Shown: positions 22,413 to 33,375 of the stretch, one piece after another
Layout: each line of letters begins with the position of its first letter
Position numbering within the stretch: position 1 is the stretch's first letter
NCBI RefSeq assembly: GCF_013372225.1
Contig: NZ_CP053832.1
Coordinates: 62,001 to 126,000 of the forward strand
From: Campylobacter ureolyticus
Lineage (GTDB): Bacteria > Campylobacterota > Campylobacteria > Campylobacterales > Campylobacteraceae
Reading direction: 5' to 3'
Length of the DNA stretch: 64,000 bases
Translations under genes and position numbers: made by a program
The notes under the pieces: generated by a model
What the model saw: the letters and a program-made list of their open reading frames with translations, nothing else
The model's database searches: none
Told to the model about the DNA's origin: nothing

Positions 22413-22436
22413 AGGAAGTGCAAATTTACACTTCCT
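22413..22436 (-). terminator. Terminator at the end of the AssT array
   Basis: AGGAAGTG and CACTTCCT form an 8-bp stem with an eight-base loop. On the minus strand it is followed by TTTTTATAATGGTTTTTT, so it is a good terminator for the fourth AssT gene. Confidence 0.75.
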
Positions 22437-22448
22437 AAGTTCATAAAA

Positions 22449-24293
22449 CTATTTAAAAGAGTCTTTATAGTCAATCACTAAAGCTCTATAGCCTGTGATG
22501 TTTCCACCAACCATTTTTATCTCAAGTTCAGGCTCTTTTGTGCCATATTTAAACTCATGAAGATATGGAGTAAGTTGTGCTGTCCCTGCTCTAAATGCTA
22601 CTAAATCTGCCATTCCAGCAGTTGCACTATAAACCATCATTGTGTCAGTTTTTGGCTGATATTCTGTTACTGAGGTTATTGGGCTATACCACTCAAGTCC
22701 TCTTTCTTTTCCAAATTCCCAAACTTGCTCAACGGTCATATTTTTTTCATCGACTTCGTATTCAACCGCTCGTGAGTATTTCATAGAAGCAAGCGCAGGT
22801 TGTTCCATACCACGGCTATCGCCATTATCAAATGTGCTTACATGTCGGATATGATCTTTTGATTTTTCAGGAATTACATAAGCAGTATGTTGTGTCCAAG
22901 ACCAATCAAATCCACCTTTTTCATTTAGATATCCCGGGCATTTTGAACCATTTGCTTCACAAACTATCTCTTTGCCATCGTTATCAATTGGTTTTAAAAG
23001 ATATTTTTTAAATTGATCATCCCAGCCCTCAGGTGATCCTAAAATCCATTTTACCTTTTTATCTCTTCCGATTTTAATTACCGCACTTTGGTGGCGTGAT
23101 GAAATTATAATGCTATCATCATAAGGGTCGTAATTTACACTATTTACATGCGCCCAGTTTCTTCCAGCCCCAACTCCAGCAACATCGCCAAATGGCATCG
23201 ATTCATCCTCAAGATCTTCTTTTGCTATAGTTTTTCCAGCTTTATCAGCATCAATGTTTAGACAAACTGCACCTTGATCCATTGCTAAAATATTGTTATC
23301 TCTATACGGATCTAAAATTGTACTTAAATCCCACTGATCAAGTACATTTCCCTCTTTATCAAGCTCAACGATAACATCTCTTACTGTTCGGACATTTTTA
23401 CCATCTCTTCTTTTTAGATCTGAGTTTGCAACTCTTAAAAGATATGTTCCTTTAACTGTCTCTTCTGCATGGTGAGAAAAGTCAATGTAGCTTCTTGGAA
23501 GCATTCTATCAAATATTTTGCGTCCCATTAAATCGTATTTTTTATAAGTTTGTCCCTGACCCCACATGATGTTACCATCTTTTGTTTGGTCGAAGCCCAT
23601 TAAATTTCCTTTTTTGCGAATATCATAGGTATCTCTAAATTTGCTAACATCAAGTTGCCATCTAATATCGCCATTTGTATCTATCATCCAAACATAGCTT
23701 TCATAATCCCACTCCAAAGCTCCTCCAGCAGGCAAATTCCAAACAGCCTGTGAGGCATTTGACATAGTTGAGCTTAAATGATTCATTAGATAAAGATTGT
23801 TTTTTACATTTTTACTTGCAGGAACGACAACTTCAGCTTTTGGCAGAGCCATTTTTTGAGCTGTTCCTGAGCCATAAGTTGTAACTGGTGGAGCATATAT
23901 TGAGTAGGTTTCTTTTATATCTTCGCTTTTTATGCCATCAACACTTGGAACCTCTCTTTTATAGCTCACTTCTACTTTATTTACATAGTCAGGATAGAGA
24001 CCAAATACTGGAATTCCACCATGTTGAAGAACTTTTAGATCGCTTACATCATAGCTTATATCAATGCCTTTTTCACCTTTTCCTTTGACAGTGACTTTAG
24101 CATTTTTTATAGCATATCCACCATCATTTATAATGGCAGTTAGTGGTGCTACACCGTAAGGATTCATAACAACTGCACCGATTTTACCAATTGCATTGTG
24201 GCTTTTTGGACCACTTGCGCCTGCCGTAGCATTTATAGCTCCAACGCCTAAAAGCATACCAGCCACTAAGACTGAACTAAGAATTTTTTTCAT
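22449..24293 (-). CDS. Aryl-sulfate sulfotransferase, paralog 1 (last in transcription order)
   Basis: The product is 614 residues with a signal peptide ending near residue 24. It is a PAPS-independent periplasmic arylsulfotransferase (AssT) that moves sulfate from one aryl sulfate to a phenol. The catalytic set can be read by match to E. coli AssT motifs: His274 (IDFSHH), His382 and Asn384 (NWAHVNS), Arg400 (SSRHQS) and His469 (WTQHTAY). A Cys pair at 445/452 matches the disulfide loop of the family. It differs most from its neighbours: His follows the first catalytic His where the others have Ser, and the C-terminus is distinct. No dsbL/dsbI pair is adjacent. Confidence 0.9.
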   Translation of the reverse strand: MKKILSSVLVAGMLLGVGAINATAGASGPKSHNAIGKIGAVVMNPYGVAPLTAIINDGGYAIKNAKVTVKGKGEKGIDISYDVSDLKVLQHGGIPVFGLYPDYVNKVEVSYKREVPSVDGIKSEDIKETYSIYAPPVTTYGSGTAQKMALPKAEVVVPASKNVKNNLYLMNHLSSTMSNASQAVWNLPAGGALEWDYESYVWMIDTNGDIRWQLDVSKFRDTYDIRKKGNLMGFDQTKDGNIMWGQGQTYKKYDLMGRKIFDRMLPRSYIDFSHHAEETVKGTYLLRVANSDLKRRDGKNVRTVRDVIVELDKEGNVLDQWDLSTILDPYRDNNILAMDQGAVCLNIDADKAGKTIAKEDLEDESMPFGDVAGVGAGRNWAHVNSVNYDPYDDSIIISSRHQSAVIKIGRDKKVKWILGSPEGWDDQFKKYLLKPIDNDGKEIVCEANGSKCPGYLNEKGGFDWSWTQHTAYVIPEKSKDHIRHVSTFDNGDSRGMEQPALASMKYSRAVEYEVDEKNMTVEQVWEFGKERGLEWYSPITSVTEYQPKTDTMMVYSATAGMADLVAFRAGTAQLTPYLHEFKYGTKEPELEIKMVGGNITGYRALVIDYKDSFK

Positions 24294-24309
24294 ATTCTCT
24301 CCTTTTGTA

Positions 24310-24353
24310 AAATTTAGATAGAAATTTCAAGGTTGAGACTTTTATCTAAATTT
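24310..24353 (-). promoter_or_regulatory. Leader stem upstream of AssT paralog 1
   Basis: AAATTTAGATA and TATCTAAATTT are perfect 11-base inverted arms 22 bases apart. The element lies just upstream of the AAAGGAGAGA ribosome site, which is left unpaired. Nearly the same sequence precedes paralog 2, and a degenerate copy precedes paralog 3. Confidence 0.6.
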
Positions 24354-24373
24354 AAAGAAAAAACATAAAAATA

Positions 24374-24395
24374 AAAGCCCTAAAATTAGGGCTTT
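24374..24395 (-). terminator. Terminator-like hairpin after AssT paralog 2
   Basis: AAAGCCCTAA and TTAGGGCTTT form a near-perfect stem. On the minus strand it is followed by TTATTTTTATGTTTTTT, so it looks like an intrinsic terminator between two paralogs. Confidence 0.7.
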
Positions 24396-24413
24396 AAATT
24401 TTAATAAATTAAT

Positions 24414-26273
24414 TTATTTTGTTTTACCAAATGCTTTTTCAAGACTAATTGGCATTGCTTGATATCCAATTCCTGTGCCTGTAAATTTGATTTGAACGCT
24501 AGGAGTTGTTTCACCCCATTTAAATTCCATTAATTCAGGTGCAGGATCGCCAACTGGAACACCTTTTGAAAGGTCAAATTGCATTCCAGCAGTTGCTGAA
24601 TATACAACCAAAGAATCTTTATCATCGTGGTATTCTGTTAAGCTTGTAACTGCACTAAACCAATCAGCTCCTCTATCTTTGCCATATTCCCAAACTTGTT
24701 CAATAGTCATATTTTTTTGATCTATTTTATAAACAACTGCACGTGAGTATTTCATAGATGAAAGTGCAGGTTGTTCCAAGCCTCTTCCATCGCCATTATC
24801 AAATGCTGCTAGATATAGAATATCTTTATTTGTCTTGCTATCAATGATAAATGCGGTATGTTGTGTCCAAGTCCAGTCAAATCCGCCTTTTTCATTTTCA
24901 TATCCAGGACATTTTGAATATTCATCTTCGCAAACGATTTTGTTACCTTTGTTATCAACTGGTTGTAATAATTTGTCTTTAAATTTTTCCCCCCAGCCTT
25001 TGTGAGCTCCAACTATCCATTTAACTTGCTTATCTCTGCCGATTTTTATCATCGCACTTTGATGACGACTTGAAATAACGATACTGTCATCGTTTGGATC
25101 ATAATCAACTGAATTTACATGAGCCCAGTTTCTACCAATCCCAGTTCCTGCTATATCACCAAAGTTATTATCAGCATCCATTTTAGCTAAATCTTCATTG
25201 CTTAGAGTTTGACCTGCCATACTTGCGTCTATGTTTAGACAAACCGCACCTTGATCAAGCGATAAAATAACATCTTTTCTATATGGATCTAAAATTTCAT
25301 AAAGTCTCCAATCATCCACAACATTTCCGTTTTTATCAACTTCTACAATCGTATCTCTAACAGTTCTAACATTTTTACCATCAGGGCGTTTTGTGTTTGA
25401 TGAGCCAACACGAAGTAGGTAGTTACCATTTTGAGCATTGTTTAAAGAGTGTGAGAAGTCATTATATCCAAGTGGAAGTTGGCGGTTGAAAATTTCTCGT
25501 CCCATTAAATCATATTTAACATATCTTTGACCAAAGCCCCACGCCAAAGCTCCATCAATATCTTGTCTAAATCCCATTTGGATACCTGTGCGGTAGATAT
25601 TGCCAGGATCTAGCATTTTATCTGAGTCAAAATACCATCTGACTTCGCCTTTTGTATCCACGATAAATACAGATGATGAGTCATTCCACTCTAATGCTCC
25701 ACCCATTGGGTTATTCCAAACAGCTTGTGAGCTTCGTCCAGGCATTTTGCCAGGTGCGTTATTTATAAGATAAAGCCTATCTGAAAACTCTTTATCTGCT
25801 TTTTCAACCTTTACAGTTTCAAATGGCATTCCAGTTTGTGTCATAAGTCCTGATGGAGTTAGTCCAACTGGACCAGTTGTAATTTGATATGTTTCGGTTA
25901 TTTTTTCATCTTGAAAACCAACGGCTGATTTTGTATAAGTTACCTCAACTTGATTTTTATACGCTGGATAAAGACCAAAGATAGGAATCCCGCCGTATGT
26001 TTTTAAAACTTGATTATCTACTTGATAGCTTATAGTTTGACCATTTTCTTTTGGTAAAACTTTAACCGATACATCACTTAAAATATAACCATTGTTCATA
26101 ATAATCGCAGTTAATGGAGTAAGTCCGTAAGGATTTAGCTTTACAGCGCCAAGTTTTCCTTGTGTTTGCCAATCCGTTTTTGGGCCACTAGCACCACCAA
26201 TTGCAAATGAAGTCGTGGCACCAACGCCTAAAAGCATGCCAGCCACTAAAACTGAACTAAGAATTTTCTTCAT
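24414..26273 (-). CDS. Aryl-sulfate sulfotransferase, paralog 2
   Basis: The product is 619 residues. The signal peptide is nearly identical to the other copies (MKKILSSVLVAGMLLGVGA, cleavage near residue 24). The catalytic residues are His275 (NDFSHS), His385 and Asn387, Arg403 and His472, with a Cys pair at 448/455. All AssT signatures are intact, so it is probably active in the periplasm. Differences between copies lie mainly in the N-terminal beta domain (about 30-160) and the last 60 residues, as expected for altered acceptor range or oligomer contacts. Confidence 0.9.
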   Translation of the reverse strand: MKKILSSVLVAGMLLGVGATTSFAIGGASGPKTDWQTQGKLGAVKLNPYGLTPLTAIIMNNGYILSDVSVKVLPKENGQTISYQVDNQVLKTYGGIPIFGLYPAYKNQVEVTYTKSAVGFQDEKITETYQITTGPVGLTPSGLMTQTGMPFETVKVEKADKEFSDRLYLINNAPGKMPGRSSQAVWNNPMGGALEWNDSSSVFIVDTKGEVRWYFDSDKMLDPGNIYRTGIQMGFRQDIDGALAWGFGQRYVKYDLMGREIFNRQLPLGYNDFSHSLNNAQNGNYLLRVGSSNTKRPDGKNVRTVRDTIVEVDKNGNVVDDWRLYEILDPYRKDVILSLDQGAVCLNIDASMAGQTLSNEDLAKMDADNNFGDIAGTGIGRNWAHVNSVDYDPNDDSIVISSRHQSAMIKIGRDKQVKWIVGAHKGWGEKFKDKLLQPVDNKGNKIVCEDEYSKCPGYENEKGGFDWTWTQHTAFIIDSKTNKDILYLAAFDNGDGRGLEQPALSSMKYSRAVVYKIDQKNMTIEQVWEYGKDRGADWFSAVTSLTEYHDDKDSLVVYSATAGMQFDLSKGVPVGDPAPELMEFKWGETTPSVQIKFTGTGIGYQAMPISLEKAFGKTK

Positions 26274-26289
26274 ATTCTCTCCTTTTGTA

Positions 26290-26334
26290 AAATTTAGATA
26301 GAAATCTCACTATTTGAGACTTTTATCTAAATTT
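26290..26334 (-). promoter_or_regulatory. Leader stem upstream of AssT paralog 2
   Basis: The same inverted arms as upstream of paralog 1 (AAATTTAGATA / TATCTAAATTT). Here the inner part also pairs (TCTCA with TGAGA), giving a longer stem. It is immediately followed by the ribosome site on the minus strand. Confidence 0.6.
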
Positions 26335-26341
26335 AGAAAAA

Positions 26342-26361
26342 AGCCCTTAAATTTAAGGGCT
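26342..26361 (-). terminator. Terminator-like hairpin after AssT paralog 3
   Basis: AGCCCTTAAATTTAAGGGCT is a perfect palindrome. On the minus strand it is followed by TTTTTTC. It sits six bases past the stop codon of paralog 3 and only seven bases from the next leader stem. Confidence 0.65.
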
Positions 26362-26366
26362 AAAAA

Positions 26367-28211
26367 CTACTTAAAAGCTTTTTGTAAATTTATAGGAATA
26401 GCTTGATATCCATTTGTATCAAAAATCTGGATTTCAACTGATGGTTCTTTTGCTAGATAGTCAAATTCCAAAAGTGTTGGATTTGGAAGTGAGGCAAACG
26501 CTCCAGTATCAAAATCAAACGCTCCACCAGCCGTAGCTGAATACATTAAAATAGAATCTTTATCAGCGTGATATTCTGTAATTGATGTAACCGGAGAGTA
26601 GAAGTCATGACCTCTATTTTTACCATACTCCCAAACTTGCTCAACAGTCATCTTCTTTTGATCTACTTTGTAAATTACTCCACGGCTATATTTCATTGAT
26701 GGAAGTGCCGGTTGTTCCATGCCTCTACCATCGCCATTGTCAAAAGCTGTTACATATAAGATATCACCTTTGCTTTTTGCATCAATTTTAAATGCAGTGT
26801 GTTGTGTCCAAGTCCAGTCAAATCCACCTTTGTCGCTTAGATATCCAGGACATTTTGAGCCACTTGCTTCGCAACTTATCTTGTTGCCTTTGCTATCTAC
26901 CGGAGTTAAAAGTTTATCTTTAAATTTATCACTCCACCCCTCAGGTGAGCCTAAAATCCACTTTACCTGTTTATCTCTTCCTATCTTAATAATAGCGCTT
27001 TGATGGCGGCTTGAAAGGATAATACTATCATCTTCTGCGTCGTGATCTACTGAGTTTACATGCGCCCAGTTTCTACCAGCTCCACTTCCTATGATATCTC
27101 CAAATTTATCATTGTCATCAAGTTTTGCCAAATCCTCATCGCTTAGAGTTTGACCTGCTAAATTCGCATCTATATTTAGGCAAACCGCACCTTGATCAAG
27201 AGTTTTAAAAACAACATCTCTATAAGGATCTAGTATCTCATACAATCTCCAATCATCAACAACATCACCAGTTGCTGGGTCAACTTCGATAATAACATCT
27301 CTAACAGTGCGGACATTTTTGCCATCAAGTCTTTTTGTATTTGAGCTGCCAACTCTTAAGAAGTAGTTTCCTTTTGGTGATACATCAAATGAGTGTGAAA
27401 AATCATTATATCCAAGCGGAAGTTGGCGGTTAAAGCTCTCTTTTCCCATAAGATCATATTTAGCATATCTTTGTCCATATCCAAAAGTAAGCTGTCCATC
27501 AGGGTTTTGCTTAAAGCCCATCATAACGCCTGCTCCATAAACTTTATCAAAGTCATAGATTGGATTTGCAAAAATGTACCAGCGCACATCTCCTGCTGTA
27601 TCGATGATGAAATTTTGAGGATAAAAGTTCCACTCTATTGCTCCACCCATTGGGTTGTTCCATACAACTCTAGTGCCTTGTCCACTTTTGTTTGTTACGT
27701 GATTGATTAGATAAAGTCTATCTTTGTATTTATCGGCTACTTTTTTAACTTCGATTTTGCTAAACATTGAACCTTTTTGATCTGGTGTGCCAGATACTTC
27801 TGTGTATATTGGTGCTGCATAAATGTGATAAGTCTCTTTTATCTTTTCTTGTTTAGAGCCGTGAATTTTAGTATATTCTACATTTATCGTGTTGTAATAA
27901 TCAGGATAAAGTCCCCAAATAGGAATTCCACCATATCCCTTTGCTTTTGCATCACTTACTTGATAGCTAAGTGTTTGTCCATTTTCTTTTGGGACTATGG
28001 TTACTTTGATATCTTTTAATTCATAACCACCATTTCTAATAATTGCTGTAAGTGGGGCGATTTTATAAGGATTTACTATAACTTCACCTATTTTTCCAGG
28101 AACTGGATAATCTGTTTTTGGACCACTTGGACCACCCATTGCTAAAGAGGTCGTGGCTCCAACGCCTAAAAGCATGCCAGCCACTAAGACTGAACTAAGA
28201 ATTTTTTTCAT
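26367..28211 (-). CDS. Aryl-sulfate sulfotransferase, paralog 3
   Basis: The product is 614 residues with the shared signal peptide. The catalytic set is complete: His273 (NDFSHS), His384 and Asn386, Arg402 and His471, with a Cys pair at 447/454. The stretch NGDGRGMEQPALPSMKYSRG near residue 490 is almost the same in all four copies. The ribosome site is AAAAAGGAGAG. It lies third from the end of the array; spacers on both sides hold hairpin pairs. Confidence 0.9.
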   Translation of the reverse strand: MKKILSSVLVAGMLLGVGATTSLAMGGPSGPKTDYPVPGKIGEVIVNPYKIAPLTAIIRNGGYELKDIKVTIVPKENGQTLSYQVSDAKAKGYGGIPIWGLYPDYYNTINVEYTKIHGSKQEKIKETYHIYAAPIYTEVSGTPDQKGSMFSKIEVKKVADKYKDRLYLINHVTNKSGQGTRVVWNNPMGGAIEWNFYPQNFIIDTAGDVRWYIFANPIYDFDKVYGAGVMMGFKQNPDGQLTFGYGQRYAKYDLMGKESFNRQLPLGYNDFSHSFDVSPKGNYFLRVGSSNTKRLDGKNVRTVRDVIIEVDPATGDVVDDWRLYEILDPYRDVVFKTLDQGAVCLNIDANLAGQTLSDEDLAKLDDNDKFGDIIGSGAGRNWAHVNSVDHDAEDDSIILSSRHQSAIIKIGRDKQVKWILGSPEGWSDKFKDKLLTPVDSKGNKISCEASGSKCPGYLSDKGGFDWTWTQHTAFKIDAKSKGDILYVTAFDNGDGRGMEQPALPSMKYSRGVIYKVDQKKMTVEQVWEYGKNRGHDFYSPVTSITEYHADKDSILMYSATAGGAFDFDTGAFASLPNPTLLEFDYLAKEPSVEIQIFDTNGYQAIPINLQKAFK

Positions 28212-28225
28212 TCTCTCTCCTTTTT

Positions 28226-28270
28226 AAATTTAGATAAAAATCTCAAATTTGAAACTTTTGTCTAGATTTT
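28226..28270 (-). promoter_or_regulatory. Degenerate leader stem upstream of AssT paralog 3
   Basis: The left arm AAATTTAGATA matches the other leaders. The right arm TGTCTAGATTT carries two A-to-G changes, so the stem has two mismatches on the transcribed strand. The copy appears to be eroding or under relaxed constraint. Confidence 0.45.
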
Positions 28271-28281
28271 TAAAGAGAGAT

Positions 28282-28311
28282 AAATTTAGGGAGAAAATTC
28301 CCCCTAAATTT
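28282..28311 (-). terminator. Hairpin after AssT paralog 4
   Basis: AAATTTAGGG and CCCTAAATTT form a 10-bp stem with a ten-base loop, just past the stop of paralog 4. No good T run follows on the minus strand, so termination may be weak; it may instead be a processing or stabilising hairpin. Confidence 0.45.
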
Positions 28312-28314
28312 GAG

Positions 28315-30162
28315 TTATTTGCTCAATGCCTTTTCAATGCTAAATGGCCATGCTTGATAACCCATTGCATTTGTCATAATGATTTCAATACTAGGCTCTT
28401 TTGCACCCCATTCAAATTCGTTAATATGTGGGCTTGGAAGACCTGTTGGATTTCCTGTTGCGATGTCAAACTGCATTCCAGCAACTGCTGAATAAACCAT
28501 AACTGAGTTTTTGTCAGCTTGATACTCTGTTAAGCTTGTAACTGAGCTATACCAATCAAATCCTCTATCTTTTCCGTATTCCCAAACTTGCTCAACTGTC
28601 TTTTTCTTTTGATCTATTTTATAAATTACTGAGCGTGAGTATTTCATAGTCGGAAGTGCAGGTTGCTCCATACCACGGCTATCGCCATTATCAAATGCAC
28701 TTACATAGATGATATCGCCTTTGCTTTTCTCATCAATTTTAAATGCAGTATGTTGTGTCCAAGTGTAGTCAAAGCCACCTTTATCGCTTTCATATCCAGG
28801 ACATTTTGCACCATCATCACCGCAAGAAATTTTATTACCCTTGCTGTCAACTGGAGTTAAAAGCTTATCTTTAAATTTATCTTTCCAGCCAACTGGGTTT
28901 CCTAAAATCCATTTAACTTGTTTGTCTCTACCTATTTTGATAATTGCATTTTGGTGACGTGATGAGATGATGATACTATCATCTTCGGCATCGTGATCAA
29001 CTGAGTTTACGTGTGCCCAGTTTCTTCCTGGTCCGCTTCCTACAATATCGCCAAATTTATCATTGTCATCAAGCTTTGCTAGCTCTTCATCACTTAGTGT
29101 ATGACCACCAGCTTTTGCATCGATATTTAGACAAACTGCACCTTGATCAAGCACTTTTAGGACATTGTCTCTATATGGATCAAGAATTTCATAAAGTTTC
29201 CAGTCATCAACAACTTGACCGTTTTGATCAACTTCAACTATAACATCTCTTACAGTTCGAACATTTTTGCCATCATTTCTTTTTAAGTTTGCATTAGCAA
29301 CTCTTAAGAAGTAGTGGCCATTTGGGCTATCATCCATTGAGTGTGAAAAATCAACATATCCAGCAGGAAGCTCTCTGTTAAATATCTCTCTTCCCATAAT
29401 GTCATATTTTGCATATCTTTGACCATAGCCCCAAGTTATATCGCCATCATCATTTTGCTTAAAGCCCATCATAACGCCAGCGTGGAATGCTGATTTTAGA
29501 TTATAAATTTTACTTGGCTCCATATACCATCTAATTTCACCTTTTGTATCAAGGATAAAAATTTGAGGAGTATAGTTCCACTCTAGTGCACCACCTGTTG
29601 GGTTATTCCATACAACTTTTGTGCCTTTCCCAGTCTTTGGTTGAAAGTTGTTCACAAAATAAAGTCTATCTTTGAATTTGTCAGTTGCAGGTTTTGTAAC
29701 TTTGATCTCATCAAAAAATACACCTTTTTGACCTCTCATACCGCTAACATCGCCAAAAACAGGAGCAGTATAAATTTTATAGTCCTCTTTTATCTTCTCA
29801 TCGGCACCTTTATATGTTCTTGTGTATTCAACTTCAACTGTATTTACATAATCAGGATAAAGTCCAAAAACAGGAATTCCACCATGAGTTTTAAGCTCGC
29901 CATCTGCTACTTTGTATTTGATCTCTTGGCCATCTTTTTTTGGCACGATTCTAACGGTTGCATCTTTTATTGTATATCCGCCATTTTTAATAACAGCTGT
30001 TAGTGGAGCTATATCGTAAGGATTTACAACTAACTCACCAATTTTTCCTTGAACTACATAATCAGTCTTGGCACCACTTGCTCCACCAATTGCAAATGAA
30101 GTTGTCACTCCAACTGAGACAAGCATACCAGCAACTAAAACCGAACTAAGAATTTTTTTCAT
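28315..30162 (-). CDS. Aryl-sulfate sulfotransferase, paralog 4 (first in transcription order)
   Basis: The product is 615 residues with a signal peptide (MKKILSSVLVAGMLVSVGVT, cleavage near residue 24). Catalytic residues are His274 (VDFSHS), His384 and Asn386, Arg402 and His471; a Cys pair lies at 447/454. It is the promoter-proximal copy: TTGACT-N17-TAGAAT lies just upstream, and its leader lacks the stem shared by the other three. The enzyme transfers sulfate between phenolic compounds in the periplasm; natural donors and acceptors are not known for any copy. Confidence 0.9.
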   Translation of the reverse strand: MKKILSSVLVAGMLVSVGVTTSFAIGGASGAKTDYVVQGKIGELVVNPYDIAPLTAVIKNGGYTIKDATVRIVPKKDGQEIKYKVADGELKTHGGIPVFGLYPDYVNTVEVEYTRTYKGADEKIKEDYKIYTAPVFGDVSGMRGQKGVFFDEIKVTKPATDKFKDRLYFVNNFQPKTGKGTKVVWNNPTGGALEWNYTPQIFILDTKGEIRWYMEPSKIYNLKSAFHAGVMMGFKQNDDGDITWGYGQRYAKYDIMGREIFNRELPAGYVDFSHSMDDSPNGHYFLRVANANLKRNDGKNVRTVRDVIVEVDQNGQVVDDWKLYEILDPYRDNVLKVLDQGAVCLNIDAKAGGHTLSDEELAKLDDNDKFGDIVGSGPGRNWAHVNSVDHDAEDDSIIISSRHQNAIIKIGRDKQVKWILGNPVGWKDKFKDKLLTPVDSKGNKISCGDDGAKCPGYESDKGGFDYTWTQHTAFKIDEKSKGDIIYVSAFDNGDSRGMEQPALPTMKYSRSVIYKIDQKKKTVEQVWEYGKDRGFDWYSSVTSLTEYQADKNSVMVYSAVAGMQFDIATGNPTGLPSPHINEFEWGAKEPSIEIIMTNAMGYQAWPFSIEKALSK

Positions 30163-30197: not shown

Positions 30198-30226
30198 ATT
30201 CTACAATAAAATTTTATAAAAGTCAA
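30198..30226 (-). promoter_or_regulatory. Promoter of the AssT array
   Basis: On the minus strand TTGACT (30226-30221) and TAGAAT (30203-30198) are separated by exactly 17 bases. The -10 ends 35 bases before the paralog 4 ATG. This is the only good -35/-10 pair seen upstream of any of the four genes. Confidence 0.7.
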
Positions 30227-30418
30227 ATTAAATTTACTTTTTATATTTACTTAAAATTAAAATTTATTATGATGTATAATTTATAGATAAGCCTAAAATT
30301 AGGTATTTTAATAGCTTATATTTTAATTTGATACTTTAAAATAAAATAAAATTTATAAATAGTAAATTATTTTTATCAAATTTAATTTACGATTTAATTT
30401 TAGAAATATAAATTTATA

Positions 30419-31468: not shown

Positions 31469-33375
31469 ATGAAAAAAATTTTTATAATATTTATATTTTT
31501 TTCTATAATTTGCGGATTTTTCATAAGAAACAGTAGTTTTTTACCTTTGCTTGATTATCAAATTTATGATCTTATAAAGCCAAAGTTAAATTTAGACAGA
31601 TCAAACTCAGTTGTCGTTGTTGAGATTGATGAAAAAAGCTTAGAAATATTTGGTCAGTGGCCTTGGAGTAGAATTTTAGTTGCAAAACTTGTGCAAGAGA
31701 TACTACTTTCAAAACCTGCAGCTTTTGGAATGGATGTTATATTTTCAGAAAAAGATAGAACTTCCTTAGATGAAATTAAAAATTTTTATAAAGATTCACT
31801 AAATTTGGATTTAAATACAAGCAAAATTCCAGCTCCATTATTAGATAATGATAAATTTTAGCAACTTCTTTAGAGGCTGGAAACAGCGTTTTAGCCGTTT
31901 TTGCCTCAAATATACCAAGAAATAAAACTTGCAACAAACTAACTACGATAAAATCAAACCTTACCTTTGAAAATATAGATAAAATAGATGATTTAATTTG
32001 TAGTTATGAGTCCCTAAATGCTCTTGCTAAGGCAAATGGCTTTATAAATGCAAGAGCCTTTAGTGATGGAGTGTTGCGTTATACAAATCTATTTTTTTAT
32101 TATAAAAACAGTCTTGTTCCATCTTTTAGTGTTGCTATGCTTATGCAAGTTGATCCAAATTTAACTCTTTTAAAAGATGAGAAAAATAGGGGTTTAAAAG
32201 TTAAATTTTTAGAAAAAGAAGTTAAACTAAATGACAAAGCAAAGGCTTTAAACGAAATTTATCCAAAAAATAAATTTAAAACATTTTCGGCCTCTGATGT
32301 ACTTTTAGAGAGAGTTGATAAGAGTGAATTTAGTGGAAAATTTGTTCTATTTGGAGCCACTGCACTTGGCTTAAATGATCACTTTGTAAGTTCTGGAGGA
32401 AAGATAAGATCTGGTATTTTTTACCATGCATCTTTAATAGAAAATTTTCTAACCAACTCACTTGTTAGTCAGCCAAATTTTTATAAAGATTTAAATTTTT
32501 ATTTAAGCGTGTTAGTGTTAGTATTGCTTGCTTTTGTGATAGTTAGATATGGCTATTTGCCTTCTTTTTTTGTTTTTGTTCTACTAACTGTTATAGCTTT
32601 TGTTAGTGCAGAGATTAAGTTAAAAAGTGGGGTCTATATTTCGATTGGATATATTATAATTCCAGTTTTTATAATATTTTTATTTTTTACCTTATTAATG
32701 ACTTTTTATGGTTTTTGGGAAAAAAAGAACTTTTTAAAAGAGCTTGAAGAAGCACACAGTTCAGCAATAGATGGTATGATAACAGTTGTTGAAGGAAAGG
32801 ACAGAGAAACTGGTGGGCATATTTTAAGAACTAGAGAGTATGTTAGAGTTCTAGCGGAGTATTTAAGAAAAAAAGGAATTTATAATTTTAGTCCAACTTT
32901 TATAAAAGTTTTATGCCAAGCTGTTCCACTTCATGATATCGGAAAAGTTGCAATTCCTGATAATATTTTAAACAAAAATGGAAGCCTTGATGAAAAAGAG
33001 TGGGAGGTAATGAAAAAACATGTAATTTATGGAAAAGAGATAATTCAAAAGGCAAAAATGAGATCGAGTGGAAAAAATCTTTTTTTAAATGCTGCCACAA
33101 ATATAGCCTATACTCACCATGAAAAATGGGATGGAAGTGGCTATCCACAAGGCTTAAAAGGAGATGAAATACCAATTGAAGGACGCTTGATGGCAATAGC
33201 AGATGTGTATGATGCGCTAACTTCAAAAAGAGTCTATAAAGAAAAATTTAGCTATGAAAAAGCTGAAAATATGATAATAAGCGAAAGTGGGACACATTTT
33301 GATCCAACTTTAATAAAGGCTTTTATAGATTTAAAATCTGAGTTTAGAAAAATTGCTCAAAAATATGAAGACTAG
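31469..33375 (+). pseudogene. CHASE2-HD-GYP c-di-GMP phosphodiesterase, split by a frameshift
   Basis: The first frame (31469-31861) gives a membrane segment and the start of a CHASE2 domain (VVVVEIDEKSLEIFGQWPWSR), then stops at TAG 31859. The next frame is open from about 31855, continues the CHASE2 domain, then three membrane helices (about 32490-32720) and an HD-GYP domain with HDIGK, THHEKWDGSGYP and MAIADVYDALTSKR. Restoring one base in GATAAATTTTAGC would join them into about 635 residues. An internal start at 32071 could yield the part with HD-GYP alone. No canonical slippery site is present, so it is a mutation, phase-variable run or assembly error. Confidence 0.8.

What the first reader, a model, noticed from the sequence alone, without database searches (positions are those of the whole stretch)
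22449..30162. Four tandem periplasmic aryl-sulfate sulfotransferases, all catalytically complete
Four full-length AssT genes lie head to tail on one strand. Each keeps the catalytic His/His-Asn/Arg/His set in matching motifs (DFSH, WAHVNS, SSRHQ, TQHT) with a Cys pair in the expected disulfide loop. The spacing from the Asn to the Arg (16 residues) matches E. coli AssT. Many bacteria have a single copy; four in a row suggests selection for dose or for different phenolic acceptors, for instance host- or flora-derived aryl sulfates.
Basis: partly seen in the sequence, partly recalled or inferred. Interest (0 to 1): 0.75.

Follow-up and report, generated by a model that had tools for sequence, protein, structure and literature searches.

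The report
Four-gene tandem aryl-sulfotransferase array in Campylobacter
A Campylobacter chromosome carries four intact, anciently diverged genes for a known periplasmic enzyme that moves sulfate groups between phenols; such arrays recur in related species, but here the array sits apart from the folding-helper genes and the sensor genes that normally lie beside it.

Summary
Four intact AssT genes (614-619 aa, PF05935 plus PF17425) lie head to tail on the minus strand, each with the full catalytic set and Cys pair. They are not recent or assembly duplicates: they are 55-70% identical to each other, while three of them have orthologues up to 90-92% identical in other Campylobacter species (dN/dS 0.07-0.14). 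So the 'dose' reading is disfavoured and retained, diverged paralogues are favoured; distinct acceptors are plausible but unproven.

The count is not unique. C. portucalensis has five in tandem, another congener four, and Sutterella up to 17 per genome (PMC10932419).

The new information is in the surroundings. In relatives AssT usually sits beside its disulfide oxidase pair dsbL-dsbI, and in 38 of 50 genomes that carry it, within 3 kb of a Cache-domain sensor kinase. The window's array has neither: dsbL-dsbI lies about 260 kb away, and no orthologue of the kinase was found in the complete genome. The array and the distant dsbL share a 20-base promoter block found exactly only at those two sites, suggesting co-expression of a split module. 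Each gene is followed by a terminator-like hairpin, and the three internal genes have a second hairpin next to the ribosome-binding site.

The parts
28315..30162 (-). AssT copy A1 (first gene of the array), 615 aa; catalytic H274, H384, N386, R402, H471
   Evidence: orthologues 88-90% identical in G002, C. portucalensis and G132
26367..28211 (-). AssT copy A2, 614 aa; no close orthologue found (best relative 70%, the A1 copy)
24414..26273 (-). AssT copy A3, 619 aa; orthologues 87-90% in G132 and C. portucalensis
22449..24293 (-). AssT copy A4 (last gene), 614 aa; orthologues 83-92% in G002, C. portucalensis and G132
30198..30226 (-). Promoter-like site before A1, TTGACT-17-TAGAAT, about 35 bases from the start codon
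   Evidence: consensus match only
30218..30237 (-). 20-base block GTAAATTTAATTTGACTTTT overlapping the -35 element; the degenerate pattern occurs exactly only here and before the distant dsbL-dsbI genes
28282..28311 (-). Terminator-like hairpin after A1
28214..28280 (-). Leader hairpin before A2, predicted to pair with the ribosome-binding site
   Evidence: whole gap z about -6
26342..26361 (-). Terminator-like hairpin after A2
26276..26341 (-). Leader hairpin before A3
24374..24395 (-). Terminator-like hairpin after A3
24296..24364 (-). Leader hairpin before A4
22413..22436 (-). Terminator-like hairpin after A4, end of the array

Best explanation
The region is an array of four working periplasmic, PAPS-independent aryl-sulfate sulfotransferases. 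Each is exported by a Sec-type signal peptide, folds as a beta-propeller with one disulfide, and moves a sulfuryl group from an aryl sulfate to a phenol through a sulfo-histidine (H471 in A1), by the mechanism established for E. coli AssT. The four are old paralogues kept by purifying selection, most likely because they prefer different donors or acceptors. The genome has no sulfatase-family (PF00884) gene, so the donors are probably phenolic sulfates from the host or its flora. Transcription most likely starts at the single good promoter before A1 and passes partly through terminator-like hairpins after each gene. The disulfide is probably made by the DsbL-DsbI pair encoded about 260 kb away, which appears to share a promoter element with the array. 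SHOWN: gene content, residues, orthology, selection on three copies, absent neighbours, predicted hairpins, shared promoter block. INFERRED: activity, different substrates, export, read-through transcription, co-expression, the DsbL-DsbI dependence of these particular enzymes.
For: Family and fold. Active site complete in all four. Three copies with clear orthologues and dN/dS 0.07-0.14. Class-specific residues near the first catalytic His (A1 ELPAGYVDFSHS, A2/A3 QLPLGYNDFSHS, A4 MLPRSYIDFSHH). A Campylobacter fetus AssT is an active, broad-acceptor enzyme (PMC11468790), and C. jejuni AstA needs its operon's DsbA2-DsbB (PMC4152235). DsbL and DsbI in this genome. Shared 20-base block, 19/20 between the two upstream regions; best of 400 shuffles 18, best of 45 real upstream regions 17. 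No PF00884 gene.
Against: No activity, expression or substrate data. The catalytic residues are invariant in every homologue, so they do not test whether each copy is useful. A2 has no orthologue, so its selection could not be measured. Related genomes hold broken AssT copies, so gain and loss with redundancy is common. The 20-base block is AT-rich and was defined from the two sites compared. Strong intergenic hairpins could mean that each gene has its own promoter instead.
Confidence: 0.62

Rival explanations
1. Redundant birth-and-death family: AssT genes are gained by transfer, shuffled and lost with little functional difference, and this genome happens to hold four.
For: Gene order and class membership of the arrays differ between species (window A1-A2-A3-A4; G002 A1-A3like-A5-A4; C. 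portucalensis A1-A4-A2like-A3-A5), copy number varies from 0 to 5 intact within one genus, and broken copies exist in relatives.
Against: Low dN/dS for the three copies that can be tested, and the same classes kept in three or four species.
Confidence: 0.25
2. Selection for enzyme dose: four copies give more of the same activity.
For: Tandem same-strand arrangement; the 5' module (leader plus signal peptide) of A2-A4 is nearly identical, consistent with uniform expression.
Against: Mature proteins are only 54-69% identical and sit in separate clades, unlike dose amplification.
Confidence: 0.08
3. Assembly or annotation artefact (collapsed or duplicated contigs).
For: None found.
Against: Single-contig genome, all copies differ at about 29-38% of mature nucleotides, three have clear orthologues elsewhere.
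Confidence: 0.01
4. On the surroundings only (compatible with the best explanation): the arrangement is a normal AssT locus whose regulator lies elsewhere; nothing was rewired.
For: C. fetus, C. curvus and C. concisus are also reported to keep astA outside the dsbA2-dsbB operon (PMC4460558). Some single copies or pairs in G003 and G001 also lack both neighbours locally (L049, L052).
Against: No kinase orthologue passed E 1e-50 in this genome (best match 31% over the kinase core), whereas the other AssT-bearing congeners have one.
Confidence: 0.3

Closest known systems
E. coli CFT073 AssT (3ELQ) with DsbL-DsbI
   Same: Same family, same catalytic His/His/Asn/Arg/His set, disulfide pair, periplasmic signal; DsbL and DsbI homologues in the genome
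   Different: One copy in an operon with dsbL-dsbI; here four copies, about 260 kb from dsbL-dsbI; Cys loop one residue longer
Campylobacter jejuni dsbA2-dsbB-astA operon
   Same: AssT plus dedicated disulfide oxidase pair, same family of bacteria
   Different: Single astA, sometimes a pseudogene, co-transcribed with its oxidases (PMC3167755, PMC4152235)
Campylobacter portucalensis AssT array (L054)
   Same: Head-to-tail AssT array with orthologues of A1, A3 and A4, hairpins in the gaps
   Different: Five copies in another order, directly downstream of dsbL-dsbI
Sutterella wadsworthensis 3_1_45B, 17 ASSTs
   Same: Large AssT family in one genome, proposed diversification (PMC10932419)
   Different: More copies, LysR genes near several of them rather than a sensor-kinase pair; another bacterial class
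Campylobacter fetus AST (CfAST)
   Same: Biochemically active Campylobacter AssT with broad polyphenol acceptors (PMC11468790)
   Different: A single studied enzyme, not an array

Membership tests
Aryl-sulfate sulfotransferase (AssT, PF05935) | Sequence match to the family over most of its length | tested here: met
   444-468 bits against a cut-off of 24.2, nearly full profile
Aryl-sulfate sulfotransferase (AssT, PF05935) | Catalytic His252, His356, Asn358, Arg374, His436 (E. coli numbering) | tested here: met
   All present in all four
Aryl-sulfate sulfotransferase (AssT, PF05935) | Cys pair that forms the essential disulfide | tested here: met
   Both Cys present, loop one residue longer
Aryl-sulfate sulfotransferase (AssT, PF05935) | N-terminal Ig-like domain (PF17425) | tested here: met
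   PF17425 92-104 bits
Aryl-sulfate sulfotransferase (AssT, PF05935) | Periplasmic location by signal peptide | tested here: inconclusive
   Lys-rich start and hydrophobic stretch read by eye; no signal-peptide program on hand
Aryl-sulfate sulfotransferase (AssT, PF05935) | PAPS-independent sulfuryl transfer between phenols | not testable with these tools
   Needs purified enzyme
AssT-DsbL-DsbI operon as in uropathogenic E. coli | dsbL and dsbI beside assT | tested here: not met
   None in the window; pair found at G000:C1 about 351 kb, beside pckA and atpE
AssT-DsbL-DsbI operon as in uropathogenic E. coli | DsbL-DsbI oxidises these AssTs | not testable with these tools
   Only a shared promoter block points to it
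Campylobacter AssT locus with linked dCache sensor kinase and OmpR-type regulator (described here) | Kinase and regulator genes near AssT | tested here: not met
   Kinase within 3 kb of AssT in 38 of 50 kinase-bearing genomes; absent from the window and no orthologue in the genome

The most novel reading that the evidence does not exclude
In this branch of Campylobacter, AssT is normally part of a sensed module: aryl-sulfotransferase genes, dedicated disulfide oxidases, and a Cache-domain two-component system that senses a phenolic or aryl-sulfate ligand. The window's genome has split and rewired that module: the sensor pair is gone, the oxidases lie elsewhere, and a shared promoter element keeps array and oxidases in step.
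Probability: 0.3. Interest if true: 0.6.

Novelty: new member of a known kind. Interest (0 to 1): 0.4.

Why it matters
The physiological role and natural substrates of bacterial AssTs are poorly understood (PMC13426309). Arrays of old, separately conserved paralogues give a ready set of enzymes for comparing substrate ranges, and the recurrent link to a Cache-domain sensor kinase offers a direct way to look for the inducing ligand, and so the natural substrate. No paper on that link was found in the held library.

Tried and rejected
NCBIfam gave no AssT name. The weak PF05935 match in G012 is not counted as an AssT (20 bits, below cut-off; one search shows a 465-aa protein of another kind). 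A candidate regulator box (GTRAGAAYTTNGTRAGAA, direct repeat) was read by eye before AssT or dsbL genes: 4 of 6 genome-wide matches in 16 genomes lie there and none in the window's genome, but the total does not exceed the reversed-pattern control and the motif was drawn partly from those sites, so it stays a lead. A one-mismatch copy of the 20-base block falls inside a 750-aa coding region, so it is not a third promoter. Paper searches for AssT with catecholamines, or with a two-component system in C. concisus, found nothing. Structure prediction was not run: the sequence match to 3ELQ is already decisive.

Full report
OBSERVATION. The window contains four intact AssT genes head to tail on the minus strand, called here A1 (28315-30162), A2 (26367-28211), A3 (24414-26273) and A4 (22449-24293) in order of transcription. 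Each matches PF05935 and the Ig-like N-terminal family PF17425. The genome is one 1.82 Mb contig and holds no other AssT. Solved relatives are E. coli AssT 3ELQ and its variants. Mapped on 3ELQ, H252, H356, N358, R374, H436, C418 and C424 are present in all four, with 16 residues from Asn to Arg. In 68 homologues plus E. coli AssT the five catalytic positions never vary, so their presence is the normal state.

AGE OF THE COPIES. The mature proteins are 54-69% identical (55-70% over full length). In a 68-row tree, A1, A3 and A4 fall in three well-supported clades with orthologues among G002, C. portucalensis (G006) and G132; the nearest relatives are 90-92% identical. A2 stands alone on a long branch. 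Orthologue pairs give dN/dS 0.07-0.14 (synonymous distances are 0.7-0.9, so these ratios are rough). The duplications are therefore older than the species and at least three copies are under purifying selection. This excludes assembly duplication and argues strongly against recent dose amplification.

COPY NUMBER. In the family, 91 of 153 genomes have an AssT over the cut-off; most have one to three, and intact tandem runs of four or more were found in the window's genome, G002 (four) and C. portucalensis (five). G131 and G132 list more matches, some of them broken genes. In the class-wide sample 74 of 298 have one, nearly all in this family. Outside the class, Sutterella wadsworthensis strains are reported with 8 to 17 (PMC10932419).

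DIVERGENCE BETWEEN CLASSES. Of 309 positions fixed within each of classes A1, A3 and A4, 94 differ between classes. Several sit just before the first catalytic His (A1 ELPAGYVDFSHS, A2 and A3 QLPLGYNDFSHS, A4 MLPRSYIDFSHH). This fits different acceptor or donor preference, but without a structure of the complexes or assays it is only suggestive.

5' MODULES AND GAPS. The first 18 codons of A2, A3 and A4 are 93-98% identical in DNA while their mature parts are 62-67% identical; the same region is less alike between orthologues of different species. The roughly 60 bases upstream are likewise near-identical between A3 and A4, and the start of that leader is found elsewhere in the genome only once, with two mismatches. 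This suggests local gene conversion, or exchange of the coding body behind a common 5' module. Each of the four genes is followed by a terminator-like hairpin. The three gaps also hold a second hairpin that is predicted to pair with the ribosome-binding site; the whole gaps fold far better than shuffles (z -5.2 to -6.2). The G002 array has the same two-hairpin layout; C. portucalensis has the first hairpin in all four gaps and the second in one. What these hairpins do is not known; attenuation, mRNA stability and independent transcription units are all possible. The only good promoter match directly before the array is TTGACT-17-TAGAAT ahead of A1.

MISSING NEIGHBOURS. In most relatives dsbL-dsbI lie next to AssT: C. 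portucalensis, the G007 MAG, G001, G004, G033, G061, G066, G075, G076, C. showae, several genomes of other Campylobacteraceae genera, Geomonas, and a Desulfuromonadaceae MAG. The window has none. The genome's DsbL (best PDB matches 3L9U and 3C7M) and DsbI (NCBIfam NF003304, 364 bits against cut-off 212) are at about 351 kb beside pckA and atpE, roughly 260 kb from the array. In addition, a sensor kinase with a dCache domain and an OmpR-type regulator sit beside AssT in most congeners and in the concisus/showae group. A profile search over the family found strong kinase matches (540 bits or more) in 50 genomes; all 50 have AssT, and in 38 the kinase is within 3 kb of it (the distances were computed from the listed matches, and draft contigs split some pairs). 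These genomes are related, so the counts are not independent events. The window's genome has no match at that level; the best local similarity is 31% over the kinase core.

SHARED PROMOTER BLOCK. The regions before the array and before dsbL share 19 of 20 bases, at 75 and 81 bases from the start codons. The best of 400 shuffles was 18 and the best of 45 real upstream regions of the window 17. The degenerate 20-base pattern occurs exactly twice in the genome, at these two places; the next-best site lies inside a coding region. The pattern was built from the two sites, so this is moderate evidence for co-regulation.

MECHANISM. By family knowledge each enzyme takes a sulfuryl group from an aryl sulfate onto the active-site His and passes it to a phenol. 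C. jejuni AstA depends on its own DsbA2-DsbB (PMC4152235), and a C. fetus enzyme is active on many polyphenols (PMC11468790). The genome has no PF00884 sulfatase, which makes exchange of external phenolic sulfates more likely than hydrolysis as the route of use. For most members of the family natural acceptors have not been identified (PMC13426309).

VERDICT. The finding is real and correctly described. Its main claim, four complete AssTs in tandem, is a new member of a known kind. The most useful new points are the age and orthology of the copies, the recurrent kinase link in relatives, and the apparent split of the module in this genome.

Noticed in passing
Relatives: L048, L050, L051, L053, L055, L062-L064, L066-L070, L076, L078, L080, L081, L029: A dCache-domain histidine kinase gene recurrently lies beside AssT genes, followed by an OmpR-type response-regulator gene in nearly all of them. 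No paper describing this link was found in the held library.
   Followed up: partly
L048:6504, L054:18413, L055:13608 and 11796, L069:7479: Direct repeat GTRAGAAYTTNGTRAGAA placed just before TATAAT-like sites of AssT or dsbL genes, a candidate response-regulator box; absent from the window's genome.
   Followed up: partly
window 31469-33375, plus strand: A CHASE2/HD-GYP gene appears broken: a 130-aa CHASE2 start ends at 31861 and the rest (434 aa) continues from 32071 in another frame.
   Followed up: partly
window 22449-30162: The array has higher GC (0.35-0.38) than its flanks (0.25-0.33); not tested whether this is transfer or protein composition.
   Followed up: no
L067, L068, L069, L078 (G131, G132, G061): Broken AssT copies lie beside intact ones in relatives, showing ongoing loss.
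   Followed up: partly
L057:8162-10479 (own genome, about 353-355 kb): An integrase-like gene and a gene resembling a phage replication protein follow atpE next to dsbL-dsbI, possibly a mobile element near the separated oxidase pair (read by eye).
   Followed up: no
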